Origin: Siphonodentalium dalli
Taxonomy: Eukaryota > Mollusca > Scaphopoda > Gadilida > Siphonodentaliidae
Reading direction: 5' to 3'
Assembly (NCBI GenBank): GCA_032622095.1
Contig: CP136065.1
Span: 242,957,530 to 243,021,529, forward strand
DNA: 64,000 nt
Part shown: piece by piece, positions 33,586 through 63,287 of the stretch
Numbering within the stretch: position 1 is the stretch's first letter
Layout: each line of letters begins with the position of its first letter
Made by a program: the position numbers and the translations under genes
Notes under the pieces: model-generated
Told to the model about the DNA's origin: nothing
The model's input: only the letters and a program-made list of their open reading frames with translations
Database searches by the model: none

Positions 33586-33588
33586 CAA

Positions 33589-36006
33589 TAGTCCAGTGCA
33601 TTTATGAGAAAATAGGGCTGAACCTCTAAATAATTGCAACACAAAATATTTTGTTTTATTTTGGTTGGGAGCATCATAGAGTATACTCAGTTAAAAATCA
33701 ACAAAAATCTGAACATGCGAAATGGCCTTTTTGAGGCAAAAAGTGGCGAAAATGATGAAAGTTGTGAAAAATGGAGATTAACATTTTTTGTTAATAACTC
33801 TTGATGTAAACATACAATTGTTATATTTTCACAATGATAAACTGTGGTACAGTTGTATCCAATATTTTGTATGATTTTATTCTATAAATATTGATTAAAT
33901 ATTCGAAATTTGGGTCAAAAAGTTTAAATATTTGCCAAAATTCAGTGAAAACTGGAAGTCTACAATAACTCTTGATGCAGTTGTAAAATTGTCATAACTG
34001 GGCTTGGAACTATTGTTATATAGTTATATCCACAATTGTGGGGTTTTTTCATGTTGTTACTACAAGCAAATAATCTAAATATTTTAGGGTGAAAAGATGT
34101 AAAAATGACAAGAAATCAGAGAAAAATGGAATTTCACATTACATGTTTATGCATTAGAAAATTGCCATAGTTGGACTTGGACTGTTGTCAGTCAGTTATA
34201 TATGGGATTTTCCATCAATTTTGGGCCAGGTTGTGGTATCAATGACACTAAGTTGTCCATATCTTGTGGCAAAATAGTGAAAAAAGAGAAAAAATATAGA
34301 AATTTATTTTAAATATATAGAATTTTGAAAAAATAATAAGTCTGGATAGATCGTTCTGATTTTCAGTCTAGGCCTCCATAAGTCTATTAACCAATTATAA
34401 ACAACATACTAAAAATCTAAAAGGATCAAGAAAGGCGAAATTGATAAATTTTGTGAAATAAATTTATTAAAATTTGGTAAAATACCTATTTTATAGCTTT
34501 TCAAGGATGTTTATAAAAAACTTCATTTCACATGTCCTTCCATTTATAGATCCATTTTGTTGAGTACACAATCCTGATTACAGAACAGAAAACATTTTCC
34601 AGATACGTTGAGAATTTTTCGAGTTATGTGCCTCCAAAATTGGGAGTTTGTCTAATTTCGGAGCCTCAATTTCTGAAGAATTAGCTAAACTCCATATTTT
34701 AGGGTCTAGTATTTTAAAAACTTGAGAACAATGAAGGGATATCTTACTACTGTATTAGTTGCCTCACTATATTGTGCACAAAAAATGATTTCTTTATGCA
34801 TCTATGACCGAGAAGACAAAAACATTCACAAAATGTGTGTTCCATTGTATGGACTTAGCCAAATTTGCCTTGTGACACAGAACTGGTGTGATGAAATACC
34901 ATATTTGAGGTCATACAACCCAATAAATTGATATCCATATGCCCTGTATTTCTCATAACCTCTTACGTATACTAGGTTAAATACACTGTGCTGTAATTGC
35001 TAAACACATATGTGCCATAATCAACTTATGGCCCTATGAATCCTTTGTTTTGACTCTTTTCCAAAAAATGCCATTTTGGACTGTTTTGTGGTGTTTTTGT
35101 CCATTTTAAAGGTGTTTTGTGTGCACAAATAGTAAACAACAATGAATACAATTAGTGTTTAATGTGTAAAATCATTTGAACGTTCCTCCTAAAACACTTA
35201 GTGTTGGAAAAAATATGATTACATTGGTTATGCCAATCAACATTCTCTGGATTTCACATATTTTTCAAGAAAATCTTCCAGTCATTGGCGACAAAGGGTT
35301 GTTTTATTCCAGTTTGTGCAGATTATTCTTGCATGGTAAACAGTTTAGTACTTTAATAATTCTTAGATGTTTATTTAGAACTTTATCAGCATGTTATATA
35401 GAACCAGCCCGAAATAATGATTCACCATTTCGCCATTGAGTTACAACAAAAAGGATCGTAGCTCGAAATATGAACATCAAAACAGGAAGCAGTTTACTCT
35501 GTATGAAAGAGTAAGGTATGTAGGAGCTGGTGATGTTAAAGTTTTATGCATCAAGGTCCATATTTTCTAGATTTTGTCAAGGAATCCCTTCATTTTTCTT
35601 TATTTTTTTAAATACAAGACCATAAAAAATGGATTTTAACTAATTTTGAGAAATTGAGCCTCCGAAATTAGACGAACTCCAAATTTTGGAGGCACATAAC
35701 TAAAAAAATACTGAACGTATCTAGGAAAGGTTTTCTGTTCTGTAATCAGGGTTGTGCACTCTACAAAATGGATATATAAATGGAAGGAGATGTGAAAGGA
35801 AGTATTTTATAAACATCCTTAAAAAGCTATAAAATGAGTATTTTACCAAATTTTTACAAATTTATTTCACAAAATTCATCAATTTCACATTTCTTGATTC
35901 TTGTTGATTTTTAGTATATTATTTGTGATGGGTTAAAGTACTTATTCCCACTGAGAAACTTTGTGTTGCAATTATTTTGAGGTGAAACCATAAATGCACT
36001 GGACTA
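33589..36006. mobile_element. TAG..CTA palindromic transposon A (non-autonomous)
   Basis: 2418 bp. Both ends read TAGTCCAGTGCATTTATG inward, and the 3-bp duplication CAA flanks it (33586-33588 and 36007-36009). Long inverted arms of about 1 kb pair, for example, TATTTTATAGCTTTTCAAGG (near 34490) with its counterpart near 35830. No transposase. The end sequence and duplication length match the three other elements described below. Confidence 0.85.
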
Positions 36007-36009
36007 CAA

Positions 36010-37053
36010 GGCTGATTCCGGGTCAGCTGGTAGAATCTTCTTATGCATCTATTATTGAGAAGATAAAAGTATTCTTAAACAAAATAGGTGTTCCATTGTA
36101 TGAACTTAGCTACATTTGCCTGTGGCACCGCATTGGTTGATAAAATGCCATATTTTAGGTAATGTAAATGAAATTATGTTTTTATTAACATTAGTGAAAA
36201 ACCATCAATTGAGTATTTTACCAACTTTTCACAAATTGACTTCACAAAATTAACCGATTTCCCATTTGTTAATCTTGTTTCTTTTGTATTTCTAATATGT
36301 TCTTTATAATGGTTTAATGTACTTATTCCTGTTGAGAAACATTGTGTTGCTATTAGTTTGAGGTTTGGCATTTTTCCTCATAATTGCACTAGATAAATAA
36401 GAATTTATCATAATCCGTAATATCTAAAAACATAGGTAAAGAATTGGCGAACTGTGTGATTATTTGTCGTTCAAATCTTGGAATGAAGTTCATGTCATCA
36501 CAAAATTATACTCGTGTTCAACCTGCTTCGTTGAGAACCGCGTAAAAATCAAACCTACTATATATAGGGTATTTTTTCACAACCGGTTACCAACAGTGTA
36601 GTCATTCACCTGGGTTAGAGTCGATGACCCCCTGCATTTCCTGGTCAATCGACTTTCTCCTCCCTGGTCGCCCGTTTGCAAATTGGAAACCACATACCAC
36701 CACAACCACAAGTACCACCTGTAACACAGTAATGAATGTTACAATCCTTCATATTCAACCAGCTTTGCATTCTACAAAAAATAGATAACCGTCTATGTCG
36801 GAACCATGATACATATTACGTCACTCCGGATGAAAGTATCTTCTCTGTCTGGTACACCCGTGCATTGTAGGTCTACTGGCCGTGTTAGAGGTCGTGATTG
36901 TGATGTTATTGGCGGCAAACTTTGTTGTAATAGGGGATAACCATGCTCGCATTAACACTCATCGGGCCAACTAACTACTAAATTACCGAAGTTCGAAAAA
37001 CTGATATTTTACCGAGATTCGCCAGTATTGATTACTAAAATTCAGAGAATACC
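36010..37053. other. Intergenic with partial copy of element A arm
   Basis: About 36180-36390 is a diverged direct copy of the right arm of element A (GAGTATTTTACCAA, TACTTATTCC..GAGAAAC). The rest shows nothing. Confidence 0.55.
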
Positions 37054-38829
37054 TACTAGACTGGTGCGAGTCAAGAACAATCTAAAAAATTTTGCTGTCA
37101 AACTTTTCAGAATGTTTTTGGATAGAATGATCATTACTCTTCAAAATACGAAAATGGGCCACCTTGAAAATGTCCTTGAATCCAAGATGGCTGCCAAAAT
37201 CCAAGATGGCCGCCATAAGGCCAATTTTCCTATCTTGTATCACATTGATGGTGCTGAATTTAGGTTTTATCAGCATGAAACCTTAATATATGCATGACCA
37301 AACTGTTGTCAGATAATAGCTTGATAAAAACACTAACAATCCAACCATATTGATGATTTTGATCCAAAATGGCCGCCAAAATCCAAAATGGCCTCCATAT
37401 TAGGCCAATTTCCTATCATGTGTAATGTTGCTGGGACTGAAAGTTAGTCTTGTCAGCACGAAACATTGACGTATGTACATAATCATTATTCTTCGATGAT
37501 CAATTAATCAAAAAAACTAATATATTAACCACATTAATGATGAATTTATTTCAAAATGGCCGCCAAAATCCAAAATGGCTGCCATAAAGCCAATTTTCCT
37601 ATCTTGTATCACATTGATGGTGCTGAGTTTAGGTTTTATCAGCATGGAACCTTAATATATGCATGACTAAACTGTTGTCAGATGATAACTTGATAAAAAC
37701 ACTAACAAGACAACCATATTGATGATGATTTTGATCCAAAATGGCCACTACAATCCAAAATGGCCACCATAAGGTCAATTTTTCTATCATGTGTAATGTT
37801 GTTGGGACTCATAGTCTTATCAGCATAAAAAATTGATGTGTGTACGTCTTAATTATTCTTAGATGATGAATTAATAATAAAAAAACTAATATAATAACCA
37901 CCATTAATGATGAATGTTATTTCAAAATGGCCACCAAACTCCAAAATGGCCACCATAACAGGCCATAAGGCCAATTTTCCTATCATTGTTGCTGGGTCGG
38001 AAAGTTAGTCTTATCAGCATGACACATTGATGTATGTACGTCTTAATTGTTCTTAGATGATGAATTAATAAATGATACTAATAAATTAACCACATTAATG
38101 ATGAATGTTAGTTCAAAATGGCCACCAAGATCCAAAATGGCCACCATAAGGCCAATTTTCCTGTCATTTGTAATGTTGCTGTGACTGAAAGTTAGTCTTA
38201 GCAGCATGAAACATTGATGTGTGTATGTATGTCTTAATTGTTCTTACATGATGAATTAATAACAAAACTAAAAAGTTGACCACAATGATAATGAATGTTA
38301 TTTCAAAATGGCCACCAAAATCCAAAATGGCCGCAATTTGTTTAATTTTCCTATCATGTGTAAATGCTGGGACTGAAAGTTGGCCTTGTCAGCATGAAAC
38401 CTTGATGTATGTATGTCTTAAGAGTTCTTAGATGGTGGATTAATATAAAAAACCTAATAAAATGACCACATTGATAATAAATATTATTTCGAAATAGCCG
38501 CCAAAATCCAAAATGGTCGCTATATATTCAATATTCCTAAAAATTTATGTATGTATGTCTTAATTGTTCTTAAATTATTAATTAATACAAAAAATTGATC
38601 AAATTAATAATGAATTTTATTTCAAAATGGCTGCAAAAATCCAAAATGATGAATTAATAAAAACAACTAATAAATTGACCACATTAAGGATTGATGTTAT
38701 TTCAAAATGGCTGCCAAAATCCAAAACCGTTAACGGACACCATAATTATGGTAAATTTTCCTATCATGTGTTATGTTGTTGGAACTGAACTTTAGTCTTA
38801 TCAGCATGAACTATTGATGTATGTATGTC

Positions 38830-39361
38830 TTAACGATGGTCTATCTCTTCATATAACAAGTTTTATATAGTTTCATGGGTATAAAATAATAAATATGAAT
38901 ATAACACATCTGTTCGGAAATGTCTAGAACTATCAATTGATTTTGATTTTATTTGTAATAATTTGTTATGCGATGATTAAATGGGACATACATTTGTTAC
39001 TATTTTTAAACAGACCGCTCAGACGATATCAGGTAGCGATTATTCGAGTTTACCCATTGCCCCGAACGTCAAATGTCCCACATTGATTGTTTGTTGTATT
39101 CCATATCAATAAGCGATAATGAGTCTAATTAACGTTTATTTATGACAAAATTAAATAAATACCATTTCTGGTCTCTGTTAACAGTAACTATTGGTGGTTA
39201 GATAAACGATCACACATGTTTATTATCAGTTTATACCAGAACATGATCAAAATATAATCAATATTAATCGATAGAAGAGTGGATCTTCAATACATATATA
39301 ATATATATTATACCATTGAAACTATATACCACGTGTTTACAAATATATAGACCATCTTTAA
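38830..39361. mobile_element. Nested TTAA element inside transposon B
   Basis: Terminal repeats CGATGGTCTAT and ATAGACCATCT (524 bp between TTAA copies at 38830-38833 and 39358-39361). The pre-insertion site GTCTTAATTGTTCTTAG is preserved intact in sister 185-bp units, for example at about 38040. Confidence 0.88.
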
Positions 39362-39512
39362 TTGTTCTTAGACAACGAGTTAATAAAATGAAAGTGTCAA
39401 TGACACTGTAGCTCAACGCGGAGAGGGGATAATGTCATATCTTACAGTCAATGGAGCGATAAGGAATGTGGAAAGTTTAAATGTTTAAGTTACTAGTATA
39501 CTAGTTTAGTCG

Positions 39513-39640
39513 CCAAGAGCTTTCCGATGAATGGCAACAAGCCATATGGCAACAAGCCATATATCCGACTAAATCCTGAAAAGTTAACCATAATTCTGCT
39601 GTGGTTAAGAGGTCGATTAATTAGAGCATTACTGTATGAG
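39513..39640. repeat. Half copy of the 4.5-kb foldback element
   Basis: Contains AGAGCTTTCCGATGAATGGC and the rest of one arm of the foldback seen in the 2.1-kb units, with a small internal duplication (GCAACAAGCCATAT). Confidence 0.85.
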
Positions 39641-41618
39641 TGGCCATCAATGATGTATTTTTTTTACGATTACATGGGTTTTCAATCACAAATGCAGCAA
39701 TGACGTAGCCATATGGTGGCCAACTTGAATTATGGTGCCCATTTTGAAATAACTTTCATTATTAATATGGCCAGTTTATCAGTTTTTTTTACTGATTCAT
39801 AATCCAAAAACAATTAAGACATACATCCATCAAAGTGGCATGCTGATAAGATTAATTTTCAGTTCCAGCAACATTACACTTGTTAGAAAAAATTGACCAC
39901 ATGGTTCCCATTTGGGATATTGGTGGCCATTTTAAAATAATATTCATTATTAATGCGGTCATTTGATTATGTTTTATTAAATTAAATTCATCATCTGAGA
40001 ACAATTTATAGACATACAAAATTGGCATTATGGTGGCCCTTTTGAATTTTAGCAGTCATTTTGAAATAACATTCATCCGTTTTTTGTCAATTTATTAGTT
40101 TTTTTTTATCAATTCATCATCTAAGAACAATGAAGACATACATACATCAATGTTTCATGCTGCTAAGACTAACTTTCAGTCCCAGCAACATAACACATGA
40201 TAGGACAATTGACCATATGGCGTCAGTTTTAGATTTTGGCTGCCATTTTGAAATAACATTCATCCTCAGTTTTTTTTTCAGTTCATCATCTAATAACAAT
40301 TTAGACATACAACATCAATGTTTCACTCTGATAAGACTGACTTCCAGTCGCAACAACATTTCACAGGATTGAAAAAAATTGGCCATATGGCGGCCATTTG
40401 GACTTTGGCGGCCATTTTGAAATAACATCAATCCTTAATGTGGTCAATTTATTAGTTATTTTATTATTTTATCATTTAAGAAAAATTAAAACATACATAC
40501 ATCAATGTTTCATGCCGCTAAGACTAACATTCAGTCCCAGCAACATAACAAATGATAGGAAAATAAAATTTATCATATGGCATCCATTTTGGAATTTGTC
40601 GGCCATTTTGAAATAACATTCATCCCTTTTCTGGTCAATTTATTACTTGTTTTCATTAATTCATCATCTAAGAACTATTAATACATACATACTTACATCA
40701 ATGTTTCATGTTGCTAAGACTAATTTCAGTTGCAGAAACATTACATATGATTGAAAAATTGACCATATGGTGGCCATTTTGTATTTTGGTGGCCATTTTG
40801 AAATAACATCCAACCTTAATTTGGTCAAGTTATTAGTTATTTTATTAACTGATCATTTAAGAACAATTAATACATACATACATAAATGTTTTATGCTGAT
40901 AAGACTAACTTTCAGTCCCAGCAACATTACACATGATAGGGAAATTGGTCTTATGGCGGCCATTTTGGATCAAAATCATCATCAATATGGTTGGTTTGTT
41001 AGTGTTTTTATCAAGACATCACCTGACAACAGTTTAGTCATGCATATATCAAGGTTTCATGGTGATAAAACTAAACTTCAAGACCATCAATGCGACACAT
41101 GATAAGAAAATTGGCATTTTGGCGGCCATTTTGGATTTTGGCGGCCATCTTGGATTCAAGGACATTTTCAAGGTGGCCCATTTTTTTATTTTGAATTGTA
41201 ATGATCATTCTATGCAAAAACGTTCTCAAAAGTTTGACACTAAATTTTTTTAGATTTTCTCTGGAATGCCCCTGTCTATACAGTGTTTGTGTTAATACTG
41301 AAATATCTTATGAGAGTCTGGAAAGTAATATAGAATTTTCACGAAATTAGATATTTCTTTCCAGACACGAATGAGATGTTACAGGTATTCAAACAAAAAC
41401 TGTGGGTATTTTTTATTATATTCACCTTATTAATGCTCAAAGTTGCTGAATTATGCGGCATTTTCACTTTTAATTGTACAACAAATTGAAGAATACTCTG
41501 AAAGAAACAACTAGTTGACCCAAATTTTTAAAAAGCTACAGTGAAATAACCAAATTATTTCACTGTGGATTCTAAGAGGTATACGACCATCTACATTTCC
41601 TGTAATTCCCTCTATTTT

Positions 41619-42125
41619 ATACCTTACTCATATTTATATTCGCGCAGTACTATTTTTCGCCCGCCCATTGGTGTGTGAATTTAAAACTGAGCGAAAAATA
41701 GTATGATTCCAAAGTTTAATATAAACCACAGTTCACAGGAGACACAAGAGGGCTATGTTGCTGATTTTAGATATAGTATGATAGTTTGAATAGACAATTA
41801 CGCCTATACATGTATGTATATATTTACATTCGGTCAACCGATATCAAGACCATTGCTCACAATGCCAAGTGACAAATCGTGGTCACATAGACATTTTTGA
41901 AATACTTGTATAAGAAATACTAATATTCCAGGTTGCCACAAAATTATGATGTATATATAGTTACTAGTTTATTGCTTGCACAATGTAAATCCGCCGCGAT
42001 GGTAATAGTACATAAATATTTTTATCAGTTTTGAATTCGCGCATCTATGTGCGCGAATTTAAAGTGCGCGCATTCAAAACTGAACGAAAAATGGTACTGC
42101 GCGAATATAAATACGAGTAAGGTAT
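41619..42125. mobile_element. MITE with ATACCTTACT termini
   Basis: Left arm ATACCTTACTCATATTTATA then TTCGCGCAGTACTATTTTTCG. The right end carries the complement, ending CGAGTAAGGTAT. About 507 bp, with a GC-richer inner palindrome (CGCGCAT..GTGCGCG). No coding. Confidence 0.8.
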
Positions 42126-43910: not shown

Positions 43911-43935
43911 AGAAATGTAAGAATTTTTTTTTTAG

Positions 43936-44004: not shown

Positions 44005-44078
44005 ACAGGGCATAAATGTTGCATGGACTTAGTTTGAAAATAGAACATAGCTGGCTGACTACTGACCTCGGGCACATA

Positions 44079-44538: not shown

Positions 44539-44832
44539 TATAATGATAGTATGTTAAGGGCGAAGTTTGAAGATTTATTAATCTCTCTATTATCGTTCGA
44601 TTTGGATGTTTGTTTTATTCTTGCTCATGTTTTTGTTTTTTCACTTCCATAAATTCAAATACCGTTCCATTTATTTCAGGTTCGAATTATATTTTACTCT
44701 GAACTTAAAACAAGCATTTATTCAATAATTATATCTGTAATCAATAGCAAAATACCTGCCCCCATTTAATTCCACTATATATGACCCATATAGTGCATAC
44801 AAACTATATCCACTTGACTATAAACCCAAATC

Positions 44833-45312
44833 ATGGATATTCATTGCTTCATGTTTTATGCCATTATGGCAAATATTAAAAGGGGATATCGATCTGATAA
44901 CCAAAGGACTGACACGAAAACCAAACCGGCTCACTGGACTGACTCAAAAACCAAACCGGCTCCCTGGATTGACTCGAAAACCAAACCGGCTTCCTGGACT
45001 GACTCGAAAACCAAACCGGCTCCCTGGACTGACACGAACACCACACCGGCTCCCTGGACTGACACGAACACCACACCGGCTCCCTGGACTGACACGAACA
45101 CCAAACCGGCTCCCTGGATTGACTCGAAAACCAAACCGGCTTCCTGGACTGACTCGAAAACCAAACCGGCTCCCTGGACTGACACGAACACCACACCGGC
45201 TCCCTGTACTGACACGAACACCAAACCGGCTCCCTGGACTGACAGAAACAAACCAAAATCAGCCGACCACAGTGTCCCCCGAAAACGTGGTAAGTCGACG
45301 CCGCTTTGTTAA
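44833..45312 (+). CDS. 159-codon repeat ORF (10-residue period), doubtful
   Basis: An open frame that translates a 30-bp minisatellite into (D-S/T-K/N-T-K/T-P-A-P/S-W-T/I) repeats. It starts at ATG 44833 with unique N-terminal residues (DIHCFMFYAIMANIKRGYRS). The unit is a multiple of three, so a second + frame and two minus frames are also open, which weakens the coding claim. A GTAAGT donor lies at 45291. Possibly an exon of a repetitive secreted protein; more likely chance. Confidence 0.25.
   Translation: MDIHCFMFYAIMANIKRGYRSDNQRTDTKTKPAHWTDSKTKPAPWIDSKTKPASWTDSKTKPAPWTDTNTTPAPWTDTNTTPAPWTDTNTKPAPWIDSKTKPASWTDSKTKPAPWTDTNTTPAPCTDTNTKPAPWTDRNKPKSADHSVPRKRGKSTPLC
44899..45246. repeat. 30-bp minisatellite, ~11.5 copies
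   Basis: Unit GACTCGAAAACCAAACCGGC plus TCCCTGGACT, with GACACGAACACCACACCGGC variants arranged in a higher-order pattern. Confidence 0.95.
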
Positions 45313-45439
45313 AGAAATTTAAAACAATGTTGAAATGTTCTATGTCGAAAGGGTTAATAATTCCGTAAAGAAATAATGGTTCCGTCATCTATATACATGT
45401 TGCACATCTCCAATATGTGGGTAACAATACTCTGAAGTT

Positions 45440-49613: not shown

Positions 49614-49616
49614 ATA

Positions 49617-52600
49617 TAGTCTGGTGGATAAACTTTTAGGATCAACCTAGAAAAAATTCGGACTAAGTTGGTTTTTATACCATTTTGAAGAGGAAGCTCT
49701 CCTCTATAATATATCCAAAATCCGCTAAAATCCGCTTTGAGCATTTTTTGTAATTCAAGATGGCGTCCAAGATGGCTGCCATTTTCCTATAAGTCAGCTT
49801 GATGCAATTATAGTGAGAACAACTTGTCATATGTATACACATGTATACATTTTTGTGAGGCTATGACATAACGCCATCTTTATGTGCCATAATTGGAACT
49901 CCCCATCCAAGATGGCCGCCGAAATGGCGACCGGAAGTTGATTTTTTACGTTTTTAACTAATACTTTTAAGATAAGTTTCTGTGGTTTGGAACTGGTTAA
50001 GAATTGTGACTTTATTTTGTATACAGCATATTAACTGACCATTGGAGCAATGCAATATGCTGATCGTGGGGTCCACACCCCTCCGATCACTCAAACATTC
50101 GATTTTACAAAACGCGGTATAACATTTCACAAAAGATCCCCTTTGGGATTCTGGTCATATTTCACCAATAAGTGGGAAGAACTGTGCAATGTAAGTGATG
50201 GATTCTATATCTTATTGATATTCGAACTCAATGGTACCAAAATTGTCAGTTTGGCTCAAAATGGCTGTCAAAATGGCCGCCAACATATGGAAAATGGTAA
50301 TTATTATCCCAGCGTGCCATGCAACCGCTTACAAGTTGTGGTGATGTACACAAATGACTATTCTGTCTTATATACATTGAATACCAACATTTCTTATGCA
50401 CCTTGATTAATTGTTACTATTTACTATTCTGAAATTACCAGATTTATGGGATTTTTCTATCACAAACAGCATCAACCTCGGCAAAAAAAAAATAACTTTT
50501 CATGTTTGGACCATTTTTTTCAAGTAAAATGGAACTATCTTTAGTATCAAATGTTCTTTTTATTTTGATATGCCTTAAATATGGCATAGTGTGGTGTTTT
50601 AGACAATATTACTCAAGATGACTTGCGAAATGGCAACCAAATTTGGTAAAAAGTTTATATTCCGAACATTATTCTCTGATGTTCCGAAATATTAGCAAAT
50701 TGTGACTCACTTGGTTATTAAACATGCTACTTAATCAACTGACAACTTAATCTTATATTATGGTTGTCCCAGCACCTTATGAGGCACGACAAATTCATTT
50801 TAAGGGATGCAGTATGGATTTTGCCGAACACCTCTTTTGGGATTCTGTCCATGTTTTTTAACGGAAACAGACAGAATGTTGTAACTGAACTGAAAGGTAT
50901 CATATTATGTGGCTACTCTGACTCATTAGCATACAAATTTATTAACTAATAAACTATTGTCAGGAAAACCGTTTTCTTCACATTGCATATAAAACGCAAT
51001 TAATGTGGAGAACACTCTGATATTACATCAATCGATTAACATATATCCTTGAGTTATTGTGGAAAGCGATAGTCAAACAAAAGTGCACCAGTACAAATCA
51101 CACATGAGCATGCAGTCACTCCATATATACATGAACACACGTAAATGGCCATGTATAGACATACACATCACCCATTACCATCCATACAGCCACAATTGGG
51201 TTTACCCATGCACCAACGCATGGCCCTATAGCCGTGACTAACCATGCAGACACACCAGGTATACTCCAACACCTCGCATGACCTCTATACATATTCGCTA
51301 CATACATGGATACAAAGTAACCTCTTGTATACCCTTTCGCCTAACCATAGGCCATACAGTCACTCCATGTATATGTATTTGTTACATGCATAGCTATACA
51401 GCCACTAAAGATATACATATACACCTCACCGATGACCATACAGTCACTCCATACCTGTTCGCTACATCCATGATCATACATCACTTCTTGTATACCTATT
51501 TACCTCACCAGTGGTCATAGAGTCTCACTCCCTGTATATATACATATTTGCGACACCCGAGGCCATATAGCCACTCAAGATATACATATACACCCAACCC
51601 AAAACCATAGTCACTCCATGTATATACATATAGACCTCACAAAAGTGGCCTTACAGCCCTTCTAGATATATCAATGTCTCATACCGCGCGTACGGCCATT
51701 CATACACTCCAGACTTGCACATACACCTGATCCATGGCAATTCAGCCTCTTGCTGTATACGGATAAACCACATTCGTGATCATAGTCACTCCTTGTATAT
51801 CAATTCACCCAACCATTAATTTTGCCATACTGTCAATCCCTATATACATATGTACATATTGGCCGTGCCATGGCCATGTGGTCACTCATGATACACATAT
51901 ATACACCTCACCCATGACCACAGCATCACTCCAGGTGTATATATAGATACCTCATCAATGGCCACAGCATCTAGCTATACCAATACCCCGAACACACGGC
52001 CATTCGTACTTCAGACTTGCATATAGAGCTCAATCGTGACAATTTAGCCACTCGCTGTATACATATACACCCTCTCCATGAGCATTCAGCTATTCACTGT
52101 ATACGCGTACACACCAACAATGACAATACAATAGGCCATACACATAAACATAGACATCCCACCCATCGCCATGAGGTCACTCTTTATATACACTAGCCGC
52201 CAATGGACATCAAAGTGTACTCCAGGTATGCATATACACTTCAACAATGACCGTGCAGTCATTCCATGTACACATATACACATTGCCCATAACCATACAA
52301 CCACACCTTATTTATACATACAGCCATCCATTACCATAAATCCAACATATGTATACATATACACCCACCCATGACAATACAGCCACCCGATGTACATATG
52401 TACAGCCCACCCCTGACCACACAGTTACTCCATATATACATACAGGACAGTGTAGCTGCTATCGTTATGATCATACACCACTTCAATGACCAGACAGCCA
52501 CTCACTCTAAACATGTTCACCTGACACATCAACATACTGCTACTCCTTATATACCTATACCTCACTATGGACATCCCATCCATGACCATATGGTCACACA

Positions 52601-53982
52601 TTGTATAACTATTCATATGATTCATGGATACAATAACTCCATGTATACCTACTCACATCGCCTATGACCATACAGTCAACAGACATACACACTGTATTAA
52701 GTTGATCAATGTTGATGCTAATGTGCCAGAATACCCACATAATATGATCCCTTTCAGTTCCGTATCCACGTTCTGCCCATTTCCGTTCAAACACAAGGAA
52801 GCTTTTGGCAAAATCCATATTGCATTCCTCAAAATGTACTTGTCATGACTCGTAGGATACCGGGACCATCAGAATAGAACACTTAGTTGATTAAGTAGCA
52901 TGTGAGTCACCATTGATTATGCATACATATACACCACGTATATACACATATGTATATGTATATAATAATGTTTACCAAAAATGTTGCCATTTTGGAAGCC
53001 ATCTTGAGTAATTTTGTCTAAAATAAATAATTGTGACACATGTAACACATATCAAAACAATAAACATCTTTGATACCAAACATAGTTCCATTTTACTTTT
53101 AAAAAAATGGCTCAAACCTGAACATCGATTTTTTGCTGATTTTGATATCCGGTTTGTGACAGAAAATTTCGAATAATTCTTGTAATTTCAGTGGCTAAAA
53201 TAGTAATACATACCCAATGTGCATCATAAATGTTAGTACTCAAGCTATATAAGACAGAATAGCTAATTGTGTGCATCACCACAACTTGTTTCATGGCATC
53301 GCTGGGATAATAATTAGCATTTTCCATATTGTGGTGGCCATTTTGGCAGCCATTTTGAGCCAAAGTGACAATTTTAGTACCATTGAGTTCGAATATCAAT
53401 AAGATATAGAATGCATAACTTACATTACACAGTTATTCCCAGTTTTTGGTGAAATGTGATTAGAATCTCGGGGATATTTTGTGAAATGTTATACCGCGTT
53501 TTGTAAAATCGAATTTGTTTGAGTGATCGGAATGGGTGTGGACCCCACGAACAGCATATTTCATTGCTCCAATGGTCAGTTAACATGCTATATACAAAAT
53601 AAAGTCACAATTCTCAACCAGTTCCAAATCACAGGAACTTATCTTAAAGATATTAGTAAAAAAAAACGTACAAATTCCACTTTCGGTCGCCATTTTGGCG
53701 GCCATCTTGGACGGGGAGTTCCAATTTTGCACATAAAGGTGGCGTTATGTCTTAGCTTCATAAACATGTATACATGTGTATACATATGACAAGATTTTCT
53801 CACTATAATTGCATCAAGCTGACTTATAGGAAAATGGCAGCCATCTTGAATTACAAAAAATGCTCAAAACGGATTTTAGCGGATTTTGGATATGTTATAG
53901 AGGATATATTCCTCTTCAAAATGGTATACAAACCAACTTAGTCCAAATTTTTTCTAGGTCAAACCTTTTATCGACCAGACTA
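49617..53982. mobile_element. TAG..CTA palindromic transposon C carrying a satellite core
   Basis: 4366 bp with ends TAGTCTGGTGGATAAA and TAGTCTGGTCGATAAA (read inward) and duplication ATA (49614-49616 and 53983-53985). Inverted arms of over 1 kb (49617-about 50980 and about 52890-53982) carry AAGATGGC motifs. The core is a tandem array (see 51080-52840). Non-autonomous. Confidence 0.87.
51080..52840. repeat. ~45-bp degenerate satellite inside transposon C
   Basis: Repeats of the type CATACAGTCACTCCATGTATATACATATACACCTCACCCATGACCA, here diverged and in one orientation. ORFs running through it on both strands are accidental. Confidence 0.85.
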
Positions 53983-54009
53983 ATATGTGAGATTCAAAAC
54001 GCTTTAATA

Positions 54010-54250: not shown

Positions 54251-54429
54251 CTACACTGTGTTGTCGCTTTCAAATGGCTGGTTAAAACGTGTAACAAAAA
54301 ACTTCTGCCTGGAAAATTTCCCTCATGCTATCGGAAATGCTATAATTTTGTTTTGCCTTAGTCGTGATTGTGGTGAGATTATTGCGAAATCCAGGACCCC
54401 CGATGGACCGTACGCGCATACAAGTACAT

Positions 54430-54785: not shown

Positions 54786-55219
54786 AAACAGGCTGTTTAT
54801 GTATACATTTATGTAACAACGTTTGTGATGCATTTACCGGGAACTATAACGCCCCGTTCACGGATACAAGGACATATAATCACAAATATGAAATCATGTT
54901 TTTTCTAAATAAGTTACTAAACGTACAGTATGCTCTGAGTTTGAATGTATCTATCTACTGGTCTACACTGATATTTAATGTATCTATCTACTGGTCTACA
55001 CTGATATTTAATGTATCTATCTACTGGTCTACACTGATATTTAATGTATCTATCTACTGGTCTACACTGTTATTTAATGTATCTATCTACTGGTCTACAC
55101 TGATATTTAATGTATCTATCTACTGGTCTACACTAATATTTAATGTATCTATCTACTGGTCTACACTGATATTGCTGAAAACTGATGTGGGCACCGTGGA
55201 AAACACTTTTTTATTTTAA
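54770..55219 (+). CDS. 149-codon repeat ORF (11-residue period), doubtful
   Basis: An open frame that reads the 33-bp minisatellite as FNVSIYWSTLI repeats. The unit length is a multiple of three, so openness is expected by chance once one unit is open. The N-terminal part overlaps a dispersed repeat. Not supported as a gene. Confidence 0.12.
   Translation: MRIFGKTGCLCIHLCNNVCDAFTGNYNAPFTDTRTYNHKYEIMFFLNKLLNVQYALSLNVSIYWSTLIFNVSIYWSTLIFNVSIYWSTLIFNVSIYWSTLLFNVSIYWSTLIFNVSIYWSTLIFNVSIYWSTLILLKTDVGTVENTFLF
54944..55173. repeat. 33-bp minisatellite, 7 copies
   Basis: Near-identical units AATGTATCTATCTACTGGTC plus TACACTGATATTT. Confidence 0.95.
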
Positions 55220-55559
55220 GGACAGATAATCCAGTGTTCTGGGCTGTAATATTTTATTGCTTTAGTTACCTTTATATTGATATTTGAAAACTGCCACGGG
55301 ACAGACTGGTCTAGACATTATTAGTGCGGTTTCCACTACCGGAGTCCAAGACAGGGGTACCTCTACTGTATGACCAGGATACGTATATCCTCTGCCAATA
55401 TTTCATGGTATCACAAAAGGCGTCAACAAGTCAATTGGCTATATTAGTATTTACAACATAAGTCATGGAACTGATAGTGTACCCCTACAACCCCCCTCAC
55501 AAAAATTAACTTCACCCACCCATTTCTTCCTTATTATGTCCCTCAACTTTTAAGCAATG
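55220..55559. other. Intergenic
   Basis: Nothing recognised. Confidence 0.5.
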
Positions 55560-56115
55560 TTAACAAGATAATATAGTGGCCGTCTAGACACCAGACAAAA
55601 TGTTGTCAAACATGGCCGCCGTTTTTTTAAAGGGGCACTAAGTCAATTTGATGTAAATTATAGTGAGCAAATCATGTCAAATGTATACAAATGTATATAT
55701 GTTTGTGATGCTATGATATAATACAACCCTTTTTTGGGGGCAAAATTGGAACTTAATGTACAAGATGGTCACCAAAGTGGTACCCGGCATTGGACAATTT
55801 GACGTGTATTCACTAATAAATTCTAGATCAGTTTCTGCTGTTTGGAACTGACTGAGAATTGTGACTTTAGTTTATATTTTCATGTTAACTGATCATTGGA
55901 GCAATGCGGTATGCCACTCATGGCTGCCAAAATGGCGGCCAACCTATGGAAAATTGTAGATATTGCCCCAACGTGCCCTGCAATCGCTTACAATATGTCG
56001 TTGTTGAATAAAATCGACTACTATGCCTTATATACTTTGAAAACTAACATACTAAGATTGCTGATGCGCAAAGTTGTAATCGGCAAATATTACTTTGCAG
56101 GTTTGGGCCATTCTT
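55560..56115. mobile_element. Diverged fragment of transposon C family
   Basis: Aligns with the left arm of transposon C (about 49760-50400): TTGATG.AATTATAGTGAG, ACATGTATACA-like stretch, GGAACTG..GAGAATTGTGACTTTA, TTAACTGA(C/T)CATTGGAGCAATGC. An internal deletion and no clear terminus. Confidence 0.75.
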
Positions 56116-56334
56116 AGCTCAACTTTACTTTGAGGGACCCTGTAGGCTGATACATTAAATGAGTCTCTTAGGCCTTCTTCAGTTGATATTATTCAGACAA
56201 AATCACATGATGGCATTCAGATAAACATACAAATAACAATGGCGGATATTTTACAACGATGGTAAAGGTCTTTCGTCAGAGAACGTCAACTAACACAAAG
56301 CAACGCAATCGCAGCATTGACATCCAAAAGTTGG
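56116..56334. other. Intergenic
   Basis: Nothing recognised. Confidence 0.45.
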
Positions 56335-56713
56335 CGCCATTTCCCCTAGCGTTGAAAACGCGACCAGTCCAGGTTTTCAACTTTGCTATCCATCTGTCTT
56401 CACGTATCAGTCTCAGCTGTTTGTTCCCATTAACCTTTCTAAAACCGATACCATTATGTTGTCAATGGAATGTCCGGGTTGATTAAAATTAAAATGCCCA
56501 TAGGCCGGCTTATCATCGTGAAGTCGAATATCGCTCAGATGTTCAACAATTGTCTCTCTGTCTCACCAACGTACACAGCGGATCCACATATCAAACAACT
56601 TATACAATATATCACATTTCTGGTTTCTACATACTTTATATTCTGCATTCCGTGTCGTATTTTTAACTTCATCCAAACTCACAATTGTGCAAGTGGCACA
56701 CGAATCCGTACAT
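56335..56713 (-). pseudogene. Penelope-like element GIY-YIG endonuclease fragment
   Basis: On the minus strand, in successive frames, it reads DSCATCTIV, NVIYCISCLICGSAVYVGET, then EHLSDIRLHDDKP..GHFNFNQPGHS and LIREDRWIAKLKTW. The order NVIY.ISC..CG..YVGET.R....EH...I......HFN..HS......RE..WI..L is the C-terminal GIY-YIG endonuclease of Penelope-like retroelements, which nicks target DNA for insertion. At least three frame changes break it, so it is dead. The reverse transcriptase part is absent. Confidence 0.75.
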
Positions 56714-56934
56714 AACCGGGTTTAGGGGAGATAACCAGGAAGCATATGGATATTCTATATGAATCAGACCGGATGCAGACGTTTTTTTTCCGAGCCGCCT
56801 TTAATCTCATACAGGAGACAGTAGTTTGGGAGATATTCTGGATCATCGTAAAACGAGTAGATCTGTGTCGATGCCGTCAGTTATGTACGGATTCGTGTGC
56901 CACTTGCACAATTATTAGTTTCGATGAAGTTAAA
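56663..56934. repeat. Inverted pair of Penelope fragments
   Basis: Arms 56663-56713 and 56882-56934 are inverted copies sharing GTACGGATTCGTGTGCCACT and TGCACAATT. The + strand arm also reads DSCATCTII, so two fragments of the same element lie head to head. Confidence 0.75.
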
Positions 56935-57154
56935 TGGAATTAATTCTGGAAAATTATTCGCAGGCCTTATCATTTTCATTCAAAAATGTTAATTTTGCAG
57001 TATTGTCGCTAGCTATTGCAATGGCAACAACATATGTGCTATATACTAAATTTAGCGAATCAACCTGAAAAATATAATACTAATATTAACCCAACACCTC
57101 TGTCACAAGGCTAAGTGTTTCCAAACCGCGGCCTTTTCCCAAATATGTCATGTC

Positions 57155-57168
57155 GTTGCCATGGAAAC
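57155..57168. promoter_or_regulatory. RFX X-box-like motif
   Basis: GTTGCCATGGAAAC matches the palindromic RFX site. No neighbouring gene start is known, so function is speculative. Confidence 0.25.
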
Positions 57169-57487
57169 CAGAAAGTATACTGAACCATGACCGCAGCCTG
57201 GGCACCCCCTCCAAAATTGCTTACCATATCCCATTGTACATATCGGCAAAGTTTCATGCTTTTATGCGGTCTGTCACGATTTTGCAAAGTTTTGACCCTA
57301 AGCTATGATCCGAGTATGCAACAGCGGGTGGGGACTCGCATATTAGCCAGGGTGCTTGTTTACGGCGCATTCCAATGTGACCAATTAGCGACGCTTCTAT
57401 GAGTATAGAAACATACACATAATGTGTAATAAATATAAAAGACAATTACAAAATCGCTGACAGAGTCACGATGCACGTGGCCCCGAC

Positions 57488-57499
57488 TGACGTCACGTG
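57488..57499. promoter_or_regulatory. CRE overlapping E-box
   Basis: TGACGTCACGTG combines a full CREB site with CACGTG. An isolated motif, speculative. Confidence 0.25.
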
Positions 57500-58070
57500 C
57501 AGTAACTGCAGCTGAATCAATGATGAGGGGGATATACCATGTATATTTCTATACTTCAAAGACAGCAAACGATCAATTAATCTGCAACTGACATGCACTC
57601 AATTGGAATGATTATTTGTGGTCTTGAATCTTCGCTACATATCATATTCAAACATAGAAATGATTTGGATATAAAATCAACTACGTCATCTACGCCCATT
57701 CGATCACATTGTTTTACAGTCACCATAATTGAGGTCACGCAGTTTGTACGCATGTATCATCGAATCATCGGCTTTACAGTTTACCTCTCCAAAACAAAGC
57801 GATAAGTTATCGATTCTTTTTTGTAAGATGGAACCTTACACTCATTGTTCAAAAATACATTCAAGCGACCAATTGTCAACTACAATTTGCGTGGTTTTAT
57901 ATTTATCTTTGCTTGAAGTGCTTGTTTGGAAGTGTTTTTATTATATTGAAAATAAATGATTGGTCAATCGATTTTCTAAATCCACATTGTTATATACTTC
58001 CAGCCGTAAGATCAATCTCATTTTCGTCCCACATTGTACATACAACTCTTATAAATCCAAACAGCCACAT

Positions 58071-61000
58071 TAGTCAGGCAGTTTGGTGAAATAATTGTGG
58101 GTTTTTGGCCACAAGCATGAAATTTTCACCAATGATAGAGTTTGACGTAGTGAAAATAATTAGCTATGGGGCCACTTGAAACAAATCCAATATGGCCGCC
58201 AATTTCAAGATGGCCGCCACTACATAATAATTTTCTTATGAATTACGGTACAACTTGTGTGTTTCGTCTTACAGCCATGAGCTGCGATGTATTTTATGTG
58301 GGAAGAGGAACTCTACCATGGATAATCGATTGACACTTTAAAATCCAAGATGGCCGCCATTTTCAAGATGGCCACCACTCTAACAATTTTCTGATGCATT
58401 GCTGTATTCCTTCTGTTTTTTGTCACACAGCATTGAGTTGTGAGTTATGTAGATTTAATTGACACTTACAAAATCCAACATGGCCGCCATTCTATGCCTA
58501 ATCACGTTCACAGTCTCCACTGCAACCACACAGGCTGGTACATTTAAGTTCTGCTTTTGCACATTTGCAGCGTCCACGGCATCCATTCTCCAGTTTACAG
58601 CCACATTTGATCAACTGCTGAATTGCCTTCGATGCTTCTGGGAGCATTGTCCAATACGGTTGCCATTGTCCATTAGCTGATCTGGCCCATCCCCATTCAG
58701 CAGGAGATGGCAATGTAGGATTTGGTGTTAGCGTCTGTCCCCAACAATAACCGGCCTGGTATGCTACCCGTTTGTTTGTGCTCTAGCAGGGCTCCATACG
58801 TTGGTTTGCTAATGTCGATATCAGAGTTGCACACGACCCCATGTCCTCGTGTCGAGATCACTTGCTTGTCTCCAACTTCTAAACCTGTACACAGTTCAGC
58901 AAGGAACCGGAACAGCTCTGCCTTATTTTCTTCATTCCTAAGGAAGGCACTCCAGTTTCAGGGAATCCTGTTTTGAGGAAAATTCAACGCGTCTTCGCAC
59001 ACCTTTCACTCGTTAGCTTCTCGTCATTGATTTGAGGATGTCATGGATGTATTCATCCCGGACAATGTCAAGCCGTTTGCTCACATCATGCAGTTGTGAT
59101 GTTATATGTTTCAAAAACACGTTTTCTCCATATTCTTGAAATGTTTTGCAAGCTCCTGATTTCAACAAGTTAACAGCAACAGCGCCATCAAGAAGTAGAA
59201 CTTCAACGTGGTGTCGGACATCAGGACTCGTTACCGAGGATTCAAGAATGGTGGCTAGATCGGGTTTCGTTCCAGAACGCATCTGGCCATACTGAGCCAA
59301 TGCTGGTGGTGATGGGTGATTCTCGTGCCGAAAGAAGTCGTCTAGATTGCAACCACGAACTTGGCAGGAAATGTATAACTGAGAGAAGAGAGCACAACTC
59401 TTCTTGCGTGCGTTAATCTGCTGCTTATCATGGGATAAGATCCGTTCTGGCGGACAGTGGAAGAGCGGCAATTTGTTATGACGTATCGGCTCGAATAATG
59501 ACTTGTGTCTCTTGCCAATTCGATCATTCACAAGACTTGCAAAGTTGTCCTTTCCGACATGTTGTACTTTACGTATGGCATATATCACTCGCTGGTCAAC
59601 GATATCTCTAGTGTCCAACACCAACAGATCCAGACTGTCTTCATCGAACGGATTACCCATTGTTTCTACAACGGTGACTAGGTCCAACACCTGCTTTTCG
59701 AATGTACTCTGAATGCTTTTGAACTGTTCATGATGATGAAGATCTGATGCTTTTGCATGATCTTCTTCCATTACGGCTTCAAATTCAGCAATGAGTCTGG
59801 TTATTTCTGGTCCCGCAACCATCCATCGACGTAATTCAGATGTATTTTCAGTCAGCCCTATTGCTCCACCATCTCCTTTCACACATTTATTGTTCTGCTC
59901 GTGAGCCTGATCTATCGGAATCCTAGAAAAAGCTCTGCTTGATTTATGCACTACAAAGTTCCCATTTTCGAATTCCTCTGCCAGATGAGGATGTTTCGTT
60001 CCAAGGCTAACCATGTCACGCAGGTGAACTGGTATCCAGCGCGAATAGTGATGATGGTCCAAGGCAAAACACCACGGAATGATCTTCGTCAGAGCGTCCT
60101 TGTACAGTTGGAAATTTCCCTCGCGTAGTGACTGTACAAACGTCAAAACGTCCAATTCAAAGTCCAGTGTTATTGACCAGTAGTGAAACTGAGGATTCGC
60201 TTGTGATCGCTCGACTTTCCATTTATCAAGTGTCGATTGGTCAGCCCCTTCTAGAAGACTGGATGTGTATGACGAATAGCTCTTCTTCATGAATATGTAC
60301 AAAGCACATACTGTCACTTGATGAGCATGTAACGTTCGTGAAACACGCGCAGCCTTGATGAAAGAATCTGCTGTTCCAGATGATGCTATGTTTGCGTCAG
60401 TAATAGCTGCTGTCCACCCACTACCATCGATCCAGTCACCAAGGGTCTTCAGTGCAGCCATCTCTATGTGGAGTCCTCCAAACATGATCAGCAATTTGTC
60501 TTCTCTGTGGGTTTGAGGAAAATTCCACTGGATGATTTTAGCAACTGCAAATAACGGTTGGTCGCAAGCGATGACTGGTACCTGTCCTGGATTAAGGAAG
60601 TCCACAGAATCTTTGATAATGTCCATGGCATGCTTTATCATTGCAGGTGACTTCGAATCATCATCAAACAGTGGCAACAAGACAGATATGTCAATCGGAG
60701 AATTGATATCAGTGGGTTGTATTTTGCTAGCATGGAATGCTGCCCAAGATACTTCCATGTCCTGTTCACTGTCTGTAGAGCTGTTCTCACACACGTCATA
60801 CACATGATTGAGCCCCATACGTACTGCTGCTGAATTGTTGTCGTAAACGTGTCTGATTCACTGATGAAAGGTCCGGGTAACTGGACACTGCAGGTTCTTT
60901 TTCACGAAGGACAACTGGTGCAACAGTTGTATAACCATCTGGTAAAGGCGATATTGTCTTCCTTCTGTTGACATCATTTGGATTGATAACGATCGCATCT

Positions 61001-62953
61001 CGTTCATGCCCAGCAAAATGAGCACTTGGATGCTGGAATAGCGATATTCTGGTCCCATGTAGTGACCCCGTAGCTGTTGTTGAACTGGGATTATGGTCAA
61101 TATTGTGGCACCTGTGGTAAATAAACCACATCGGAGCTTCCGAGGACACACAAGTTGATCTTTCTCAAATTGGTCGCAAACACTATTGCCCACATCTGTA
61201 GATTATCTGTAGTAACCTCTCATATGAAATTGACAAGCCCAATTGATGCATTTTCTCAACGATACCTCGCTTTCGTGTCATCGCATGTAACAGGAGTCCA
61301 ATATAGATTGGTAGTGGCGGTTCTCGTTTTGTGGAGTGGAATGTTGCAGTTGATCCTTTACGGCGACGAATAGAGGTATTATAACAAATTATATGTGCCA
61401 GAGTTAGTACAGCCTGAGGTGCAGTACTATTGCTTGATTGACTTGCAATATTTGGACCATCTAAGACCATGGCCACCAGTGTAGATAGTGATTGTGGAAC
61501 TGACAATTCCTGACACATGCTTCCAAATTCACCACTGAATTGAGATTCACTTTTTCGATTGATGTCTCTACGGATGATGTTTGCAGCTTTGGCCAGAATA
61601 ATGGCTTCATCATCATTGTTTGTATTATAGGCCTTGTTCAGGGCAAGCGCAATGTCGTCTTGGAATGCAGGTAGACATCCGGTCCCCTCTTGTGTGCTTG
61701 CATGTCTGGAAACTGTGCTAGAATTCTATTTTTCAATTCTGTGCTGTGTATACGACCAGCGACACTTACTCCAAGCTGCTCCAAACGTGCAAGGTACATT
61801 TTGACAAGGTCAGCTAGTTTTAGCACTAGAGGCTGATCACTGCCGCAGTCTTCTCTGCCTTCAGTTATATAAGAGACCAACCCAGCATGCACAATACCAT
61901 GAATTTGTCTCTCTCCTTCATAATTGACATCTGGCATAACTGCTTTATCTGCCTTTTTGTACAAGGTGCTGAGGCAGTTGATATGGTAGAGTGCATCTTG
62001 CGCCACCATATCTCCTGAACTGAGTTTCCCTAGCAACAGCGTATCTTCTAGAATCCGAGCACAGTTTCTAACTCGTTGGTCCAAACCGAATGTCGATACT
62101 TTACGCATTCCTCCCTTGTCTACACCAGTACCACAGAAGAAACATATATGTACATCATCTGATCCCATGACCGATGAGTCACAACTGCGTCTTGTGGCTT
62201 TGTTGGTATTCAGATCATCATCATCATTGGATTGTCTCTTGCGTGCTCGTTGCAATTTAGTATTTTTGAAGCGATCGTTACAGTTTTTGTGCCATTTTGC
62301 TTGATGCTCTTTGAAGATATCTGTCAATGAACTGTCTGCTGCTAACTTCAATAACGTTTCTGGTACCAGTATTGAATCCGATGTGCAACTAAGTTGCTGG
62401 AAACCTTCTATACTTTTGTCAAAAGTCTCGTACCCAACACCGATATCTACATCTGATCGCTTGCTGTTCGCTGGACATTGAAGCTTTTCATTTGTCATTA
62501 GTTGACACACAACACACTTTTCCCAGTCAAACTGGTCCGACGAATCACTTGCCATACTCGTATTTCAAAGTCCTGAAAGATACAAAAGAAAAAGTTGATT
62601 AGCTCATGTTGAACAACTTTTTGGGTGTGTAACGAATGGCGGCCATCTTGAAAATGCCGGCCATCTTGGATTTTAAAGTGTCAATCGATTACCCGTGGTA
62701 GAGTTCCTCTTCCCACATAAAATACATCACAGCTCATGGCTGTAATACGAAACACACAAGTTGTACAGTAATTCATAAGAAAATTCTTATGTAGTGGCGG
62801 CCATCTTGAAATTGGCGGCCATATTGGATTTTTTTCAAGTGGCCCCATAGCTAATTTTTTTCACTAAGTCAAACTCTATCATTGGTGAAAATTTCATGCT
62901 TGTGGCCAAAAACCCACAATTCACCCCAAAATATTCACCAAACTGCCTTACTA
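58071..62953. mobile_element. TAG..CTA transposon D with coding region (Academ-like)
   Basis: 4883 bp with ends TAGTCAGGCAGTTTGGTG and TAGTAAGGCAGTTTGGTG (read inward), flanked by CAT on both sides (58068-58070 and 62954-62956). Terminal inverted repeats of about 310 bp (58071-58380 and 62633-62953) carry CAAGATGGCCGCC twice each. A partial third copy of the inner TIR segment lies at 58454-58492. The minus strand between the TIRs is one long decayed gene. As I recall, Academ transposons have 3-4-bp duplications and a Cys-rich transposase with an XPG-type nuclease; this element fits. Confidence 0.85.
58498..62555 (-). pseudogene. Decayed transposon protein (transposase; XPG-like part deleted)
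   Basis: One former intronless gene read through successive frames: 62555 to ~61670 (two Cys clusters, CVVCQLM and CFFCGTGVDKGG), ~61668-61190 (DDEAIILAKAANIIRRD, LGLSISYERLL), ~61193-61105, ~61110-60818 (NIDHNPSSTTA, ISLFQHPS), then 601 intact codons 60818-59013 (VPVIACDQPLFAVAKI, GGLHIEMAALKTLGDW, ASSGTADSFIKA, LDHHHYSRWIPVH, IPIDQAHEQNNK, ELRRWMVAGPEI). The Asp/Glu in CDQPL, LDHHHY and AHEQ are candidate catalytic residues. The C-terminus (to 58498) has PSPAEWGW and a Cys-rich end (CGCKLENGCRGRCKC). Defects: at least six frame changes, an in-frame TGA (58960-58958), and a deletion of about 200 residues at ~58808 where relatives carry E-A-D, D-T-D and G-C-D motifs, the pattern of an XPG-type nuclease. 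Family recall is from memory. Confidence 0.85.
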
Positions 62954-63287
62954 CATACAATAGTATAAGTTGAGACTTTCAGTACCGGTACCGGTACCAC
63001 ACACAGAACCGCCCCAATACCGATAAGTCTGGAACAGTCGGTACTGTGAGAAGCCTGATCGTAAGTATCACACCCTGCAGGTAGATAGATAGCTGCGTCC
63101 CGCCTAATTCGGAATTTAAAAGGGTTAATATATCCACGTAAGCCGTAGCTAGCAACTTGCCTGATGCAGAGGGGTGTTCACTGCAGATAGACAGATTTAT
63201 TGACAGATACGCCCACTCGAGGCCGATGTCAAAGCAATTACATAAATAAAATGTGATTATAATTATAGCAACATAAAATTATTAATT

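What the first reader, a model, noticed from the sequence alone, without database searches (positions are those of the whole stretch)
33586..62956. Four large elements share TAG..CTA ends and perfect 3-bp target duplications
Elements A (33589-36006), B (37057-41278), C (49617-53982) and D (58071-62953) have different interiors. Their termini nevertheless read TAGTCCAG, TAGACTGG/TAGACAGG, TAGTCTGG and TAGTCAGG/TAGTAAGG, and each is flanked by an exact 3-bp duplication (CAA, TAC, ATA, CAT). Chance agreement at all four is very unlikely. I infer one transposition system with one coding member (D) and three palindromic non-autonomous families. It is probably Academ-like; if not, it is a less described superfamily.
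Basis: partly seen in the sequence, partly recalled or inferred. Interest (0 to 1): 0.85.

Follow-up and report, generated by a model that had tools for sequence, protein, structure and literature searches.

The report
TAG-ended transposons with 3-bp target duplications
Four different mobile DNA elements in one large genome share the same end letters and the same 3-base insertion footprint, and three of them also carry matching regulatory-looking sites near both ends, so they appear to be moved by one kind of cut-and-paste enzyme whose genes still have uninterrupted copies.

Summary
Of 53 non-duplicate insertions with both flanks read (A 10, B 18, C 19, D 6), 50 have an exact 3-bp duplication directly outside TAG...CTA and none has 4 bp; mismatched flanks agree over 3 bp in 5.1%. 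Insertions into tandem arrays show empty sites with the triplet once. D holds broken pieces of a ~1,520-aa protein; related genes with stop-free frames of 1,507-1,534 aa exist, and two such families end ...CTA at their right boundary. B, C and D, largely unrelated in sequence, carry an inward-pointing CAAGATGGC (the YY1 consensus) near all 52 ends examined, and so does the right end of the stop-free L059/L060 family at the same distances; A has none in 20 ends. A carries remnants of a second, related gene. So: one superfamily, at least two transposase lineages; the window's D is defective. TSD length fits AcademX, but no Academ sequence was available and the suspected nuclease domain matched no library: membership likely, not shown. 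AcademH's longer TSD does not fit.

The parts
33589..36006 (.). Element A (2418 bp), ends TAGTCCAGTGCATTTATG; TSD CAA at 33586-33588 and 36007-36009
37057..41278 (.). Element B (4222 bp), ~1.3 kb inverted arms with ~186-bp tandem repeats; TSD TAC at 37054-37056 and 41279-41281
49617..53982 (.). Element C (4366 bp), ~1.35 kb inverted arms; TSD ATA at 49614-49616 and 53983-53985; 2075 end candidates in the genome
58071..62953 (-). Element D (4883 bp), ~300-bp terminal inverted repeats; TSD CAT at 58068-58070 and 62954-62956; coding strand minus
61668..62540 (-). D coding piece, matches residues 25-305 of the relative in L057 (Cys/His-rich N-terminus)
60886..61689 (-). D coding piece, matches residues 299-567, another frame
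59022..61202 (-). D coding piece, matches residues 462-1178; includes the 614-aa open frame 59013-60857 with presumed catalytic acidic motifs
58820..58972 (-). D coding piece, matches residues 1194-1244; 525 nt present in sister copies are absent near 58805
58501..58770 (-). D coding piece, matches residues 1436-1523 (Cys-rich C-terminus)
37187..37214 (+). B left subterminal ATGGCNGCC sites (element positions 131 and 150, both within CAAGATGGC); a further site at 313
41121..41148 (-). B right subterminal sites (131 and 150 from the right end, the first within CAAGATGGC); a further site at 316
49772..49780 (+). C left subterminal site (position 156; a second at 296), within CAAGATGGC
53836..53844 (-). 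C right subterminal site (139 from the right end; a second at 278), within CAAGATGGC
58192..58218 (+). D left subterminal sites (122, within CAATATGGC, and 140, within CAAGATGGC; a further one at 280)
62796..62822 (-). D right subterminal sites (132, within CAATATGGC, and 150, within CAAGATGGC, from the right end; a further one at 308)

Best explanation
A, B, C and D are members of one superfamily of DDE cut-and-paste DNA transposons, most likely the AcademX branch of Academ. Shown: the element begins TAG and ends CTA, nearly every insertion examined duplicates exactly 3 bp, and empty sites have the triplet once. Shown: B, C and D have the same subterminal plan, an ATGGCNGCC site at 112-164 bp from every end examined and mostly a second at 270-317 bp, with at least one inward-pointing CAAGATGGC; the right end of a stop-free coding family (L059/L060) has TAG and the same two sites at 151 and 322. 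Shown: A copies carry remnants of a second, related gene. Inferred: a transposase of this lineage (~1,500 aa: Cys/His-rich N-terminus, catalytic domain, nuclease-like domain, Cys-rich C-terminus), made by stop-free relatives, pairs the two ends, cuts at TAG/CTA and joins them to target DNA with a 3-bp stagger, preferring A/T-rich triplets between a C-rich and a G-rich side. B and C are non-autonomous passengers of that lineage, A of the second lineage. Inferred: the subterminal sites are transposase-binding sites, or sites for the host factor YY1 as described for the ProtoRAG transposon of lancelet, or both.
For: TSD 50 of 53, 4 bp 0 of 53. Empty sites: 17 of 26 array matches that span the joined flanks are ungapped within 12 bp of the junction; A in L027 is 98-99% identical and ungapped in 4 of 4. 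Target: over 47 insertions, C at the three positions outside the TSD in 32, 34 and 32 of 94 cases against 18.4% background. Subterminal ATGGCNGCC 100-330 bp from the end in 52 of 52 ends of B (2), C (38), D (12), A 0 of 20; 8 such sites in 48 kb of window outside the elements; CAAGATGGC inward in 52 of 52, outward in 0 of 52, second site in 40 of 52. L059 and L060, with frames of 1,507 and 1,509 aa, show the sites at 151 and 322 from their TAG end. Of 12 non-D genomic matches to the D subterminal stretch, 5 lie within 5 kb of the coding motif DN.DHNPSS and a sixth within 5 kb of a D-like protein match; 0.004 expected. That motif is at 115 genomic places, reversed control 0. Seven of the listed protein matches lie in stop-free frames of 1,507-1,534 aa. 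Right boundaries of two such families, set by where sister copies diverge, read ...CTA. A remnants: 10 of 20 A loci match the relatives' C-terminus at E <= 0.05 (best 1.4e-5), 0 of 20 C loci; 126 reversed or shuffled queries gave 3 short matches, E 0.008-0.042. The 159-aa A remnant has 2880 genomic candidates, and one of the 150 scored lies in a 1,532-aa stop-free frame.
Against: No Academ reference sequence was on hand, so homology to Academ transposase is untested. Pfam, NCBIfam and the PDB gave no significant match to the protein, so neither a DDE fold nor a nuclease is confirmed; the structure model was useless (pLDDT 37). No stop-free copy with the ends of A, B, C or D was seen. The left ends of the stop-free relatives were not determined, so their TSD is unknown. 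L057/L058, closer to D in protein than L059/L060, have no such sites in the 400 bp inside their right end. Three pairs lack the TSD (L026, L074/075, L098/099). 9 of the 26 array matches have a gap near the junction, and those of L046 and L051 are only 68-76% identical. The target preference is clear in C, modest in A, weak in B and D. The window's own A shows no coding remnant. No exact DN.DHNPSS motif is listed near the 1,532-aa frame that matches the A remnant, so the A-type catalytic core is unseen. Copies of one family are not independent: for the subterminal sites the independent units are three families plus L059/L060.
Confidence: 0.78

Rival explanations
1. The elements belong to a DDE lineage that is not Academ: a related but undescribed superfamily, with TAG...CTA ends, 3-bp duplications, a ~1,500-aa protein and paired YY1-like subterminal sites.
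For: No library match for the protein; none of the passages read gives TAG termini for Academ.
Against: A 3-bp TSD and an encoded nuclease are what PMC10045372 links with AcademX; Academ elements average 5,565 bp in bivalves (PMC10294476, passages), close to the D copies (4.8-5.6 kb). Absence from Pfam says little.
Confidence: 0.2
2. The four families use unrelated transposases; the shared TAG and 3 bp are coincidence or convergence, and the subterminal motif is only a host YY1 or promoter site picked up independently.
For: Beyond the first bases the inverted repeats of the families are unrelated apart from the motif stretch; CAAGATGGC is the YY1 consensus (PMC7481187, passages), which also occurs in the TIRs of an unrelated transposon.
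Against: Same first bases, same TSD length, same subterminal positions and orientation in B, C, D and at the right end of the coding L059/L060 family; D-like genes lie beside the D stretch elsewhere; A carries remnants of a related gene.
Confidence: 0.1
3. They are EnSpm/CACTA or PIF/Harbinger elements, which also make 3-bp duplications.
For: TSD length (2 or 3 bp typical of Harbinger, PMC3627910 passage; CACTA lengths recalled).
Against: Ends are TAG, not CACT; the duplicated triplets vary, 20 kinds among 39, not a fixed TWA (that preference is recalled); no Pfam family at all matches the 1,523-aa relative at E <= 1.
Confidence: 0.04
4. The duplicated triplet is part of the element and the real footprint is the dinucleotide TA (Tc1/mariner-like reading, TA before G...C).
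For: TA stands at both ends of the four elements and of the paired copies listed.
Against: Empty sites in tandem arrays contain the triplet once and no added TA (L027, L038 and one L055 match).
Confidence: 0.01

Closest known systems
AcademX branch of the Academ superfamily
   Same: 3-bp TSD (3 or 4 bp stated in PMC10045372); large protein with a nuclease-like part; element length similar to bivalve Academ (PMC10294476)
   Different: No sequence comparison was possible; nuclease identity not confirmed; TAG...CTA ends and paired YY1-like subterminal sites are not described in the passages read
AcademH (Academ with helicase)
   Same: Perhaps the same superfamily
   Different: AcademH makes 9-10 bp TSDs (PMC10045372); here 3 bp; no helicase match
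ProtoRAG of lancelet (PMC7481187, passages read)
   Same: YY1 consensus GCCATCTTG inside the terminal inverted repeats
   Different: RAG-like transposase (paper); only the regulatory feature is shared, likely convergent
EnSpm/CACTA
   Same: 3-bp duplications (recalled)
   Different: TAG instead of CACT ends; no profile match

Membership tests
Academ, AcademX branch | Target site duplication of 3 or 4 bp (PMC10045372) | tested here: met
   50 of 53 exact 3 bp, 0 of 53 exact 4 bp
Academ, AcademX branch | DDE transposase homologous to Academ transposases | not testable with these tools
   No Academ sequence or profile on hand; Pfam, NCBIfam and PDB without significant match; Kojima 2020 and Yuan & Wessler 2011 not held
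Academ, AcademX branch | Nuclease encoded in the element (XPG type: recalled) | tested here: inconclusive
   Conserved HEEAD, DTD and GCD motifs resemble XPG motifs (recalled) by eye, but no significant library match
AcademH | 9-10 bp TSD and helicase | tested here: not met
   3-bp TSD; no helicase match
EnSpm/CACTA | CACT termini (recalled) | tested here: not met
   Ends are TAG...CTA
PIF/Harbinger | Harbinger-type transposase | tested here: not met
   No Pfam family at E <= 1 for the 1,523-aa relative
   Subterminal ATGGCNGCC in 52 of 52 ends of B, C, D, in 0 of 20 ends of A; the terminal TAG and the TSD are shared by all four

The most novel reading that the evidence does not exclude
A separate, recently mobile DDE superfamily defined by TAG...CTA ends, a strict 3-bp duplication and an A/T-rich target between C and G sides. 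In its main lineage two YY1-type sites at fixed distances from each end serve as the end-pairing code shared by coding elements and by otherwise unrelated non-autonomous families, so that a host zinc-finger protein gates transposition as in ProtoRAG.
Probability: 0.18. Interest if true: 0.72.

Novelty: new variant of a known kind. Interest (0 to 1): 0.5.

Why it matters
It turns a visual pattern into a defined transposon group: boundaries, insertion footprint, target preference, stop-free coding relatives, and a subterminal code shared by families with unrelated inverted repeats. That lets non-autonomous families be assigned to a transposase lineage without overall sequence similarity, and it offers a test of whether YY1 control of transposon ends (shown for ProtoRAG, PMC7481187) arose again in another superfamily.

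Tried and rejected
Profile searches of the D pieces and of one stop-free relative in Pfam and NCBIfam: only insignificant names. PDB by sequence and by profile: nothing significant. Structure of the 614-aa piece: pLDDT 37, not used for a fold search. Relatives in viral contigs (one scan) and phage records: none. A programmed frameshift in D was considered and dropped: breaks in the copies lie partly at different places (one near residue 281 is shared by L010, L012 and L013). A link with zinc-finger gene arrays was considered when L059 ended beside one and dropped: the C2H2 pattern was found in one of five loci. The TA-duplication reading was rejected by the empty sites. The left ends of the stop-free relatives were sought by DNA search and not determined. 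Not checked: whether the A-type partner has the D-type catalytic core. The first paper search matched 'academic' and was useless. Several papers that hold 'Academ' with TIR and TSD were seen only in listings and not opened.

Post hoc points: re-pairing of A ends after the first result; the subterminal motif and the target preference were noticed first and then counted in copies of the same families; three protein places were added by eye to the 100 listed motif places (without them 5 of 12 remain), the motif list stops before C9, and three weak matches inside D copies were left out.
Full report
What is there. The window lies at C5:242957530-243021529 of a 2.23-Gb genome in 9 contigs; the species is not given.

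Is it more than chance? Over 53 non-duplicate insertions (the window's four included) the flanks agree over exactly 3 bp in 50 (A 9/10, B 16/18, C 19/19, D 6/6) and over 4 bp in none; flanks of different insertions agree over 3 bp in 5.1%. Dropped before the count: two duplicates (L017, L030) and the loci in which only one outer end was found (9 of 20 A, 2 of 20 C, 3 of 8 D); B hits beyond the 17 pairs were not examined. Several copies sit in tandem arrays whose other units are uninterrupted: of 26 matches spanning the joined flanks, 17 are ungapped within 12 bp of the junction, among them 4 of 4 for A in L027 (98-99% identical) and one for C in L038 (94.7%); 9 have gaps there, and the L046 and L051 matches are only 68-76% identical. 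Where the match is good the triplet occurs once, so it is a true duplication and TAG and CTA belong to the element. The duplicated triplet is mostly A/T, and the three bases beyond it are enriched for C on the left and G on the right (32, 34 and 32 of 94 against 18.4%): clear for C, modest for A, weak for B and D.

The coding member. D encodes, on the minus strand, pieces of a large protein in several frames. Its 614-aa piece finds 2174 candidate places, 72 scored, the listed matches at 34-100% identity; seven of them lie in stop-free frames of 1,507-1,534 aa. The relative in L057 is a single 1,523-aa frame from its first ATG. Against it the window's D covers residues 25-1178, 1194-1244 and 1436-1523 in several frames and lacks 525 nt that at least three other D copies have; L009 appears to lack them too. 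The seven D copies compared (window, L009, L010, L011, L012, L013, L015) are each broken; L014 and L016 were not assessed. Across L010, L057, L058, L059, L060 and L061 the protein keeps a DN.DHNPSS motif, an xxDxP motif and a DxxHEQ motif (DxxHAQ in L010), which I read as the catalytic acidic residues; then HEEAD, DTD and GCD motifs that resemble an XPG-type nuclease by eye (XPG motifs recalled); and a Cys-rich end. In the D copies L010 and L013 the GCD motif is changed. None of these assignments is confirmed by a library match. The motif DN.DHNPSS occurs at 115 places in the genome, the reversed control at none. For two stop-free families, one pair of copies each, the point where the copies diverge on the right is ...CTA, so the TAG rule extends to them at one end; their left ends were not determined.

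Which elements go together? Outside the first bases A-D share little: a short stretch between B and D and a 20-nt match of B and C. That stretch is built around ATGGCNGCC. It sits at the same distances from every end examined: B 2 of 2 ends, C 38 of 38, D 12 of 12, at 112-164 bp; a second site at 270-317 bp is present in 40 of 52 ends (B 2, C 27, D 11); A 0 of 20. Each of the 52 ends has an inward-pointing CAAGATGGC and none has an outward one. The right end of the stop-free L059/L060 family (TAGTGTAGG...) has the same two sites at 151 and 322, same orientation; C shares a 29-nt, 93% match with it there. The right end of L057/L058 has none. Elsewhere, of 12 non-D matches to the D stretch, 5 lie within 5 kb of the coding motif and a sixth within 5 kb of a D-like protein match, 0.004 expected. 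I infer that B, C and D are served by one transposase lineage, to which L059/L060 belongs. CAAGATGGC is the YY1 consensus, and YY1 binds such a site in the TIRs of the lancelet transposon ProtoRAG, suppresses its transposition and promotes rejoining after excision (PMC7481187; passages, including part of the abstract). So the sites may be host-factor sites rather than transposase sites, or both; the data do not decide.

A belongs to another lineage. Ten of 20 A loci match the Cys-rich C-terminus of the relatives at E <= 0.05 (best 1.4e-5); no C locus of 20 does, the window's A, B and C do not, and 126 reversed or shuffled queries gave 3 short matches. L018 keeps a 159-aa stop-free stretch with that part behind an upstream part. 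This remnant has 2880 candidate places, 150 scored; one match (60% over residues 61-157) lies in a stop-free frame of 1,532 aa on C2. No exact DN.DHNPSS motif is listed near that place, so its catalytic core remains unseen.

Known kinds. PMC10045372 (passages) states that AcademX makes 3 or 4 bp and AcademH 9 or 10 bp duplications and relates this to the helicase and nuclease they encode; PMC10294476 (passages) gives a mean of 5,565 bp for bivalve Academ. The primary description (Kojima 2020) and Yuan & Wessler 2011 are not held. The fit to AcademX is good, but the defining test, sequence homology of the transposase, could not be made. In the listings and passages seen I found nothing giving TAG termini or YY1 sites for Academ (searches; passages 25, 28, 35-37, 97-100); that is a statement about this library and about what was opened.

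Verdict.

Noticed in passing
33439-36159: Element A with its flanks is present a second time about 228 kb upstream (L017) with the same target duplication: a segmental duplication rather than a second insertion.
   Followed up: partly
L019:1412, L021:2641, L025:2356 and other A loci: 12 of 20 A loci hold an internal end-like repeat, 74-84% identical, mostly flanked by CTAT and about 1.2-1.6 kb from one end: A looks composite or nested.
   Followed up: partly
L013:5294-5833: One D copy has its terminal repeat twice in tandem at one end.
   Followed up: no
L059:7357-7640: A stop-free relative abuts a C2H2 zinc-finger array on its right side; the same pattern was not found in L057, L058, L060 or L061.
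   Followed up: partly
44741-45388: A 30-bp tandem repeat (11.5 copies) coincides with long open frames on both strands; probably only because the period is a multiple of three.
   Followed up: no
C9:181503754-181514819 of the genome: By coordinates, two relatives of the L060 family lie head to tail, at most 240 bp apart.
   Followed up: no
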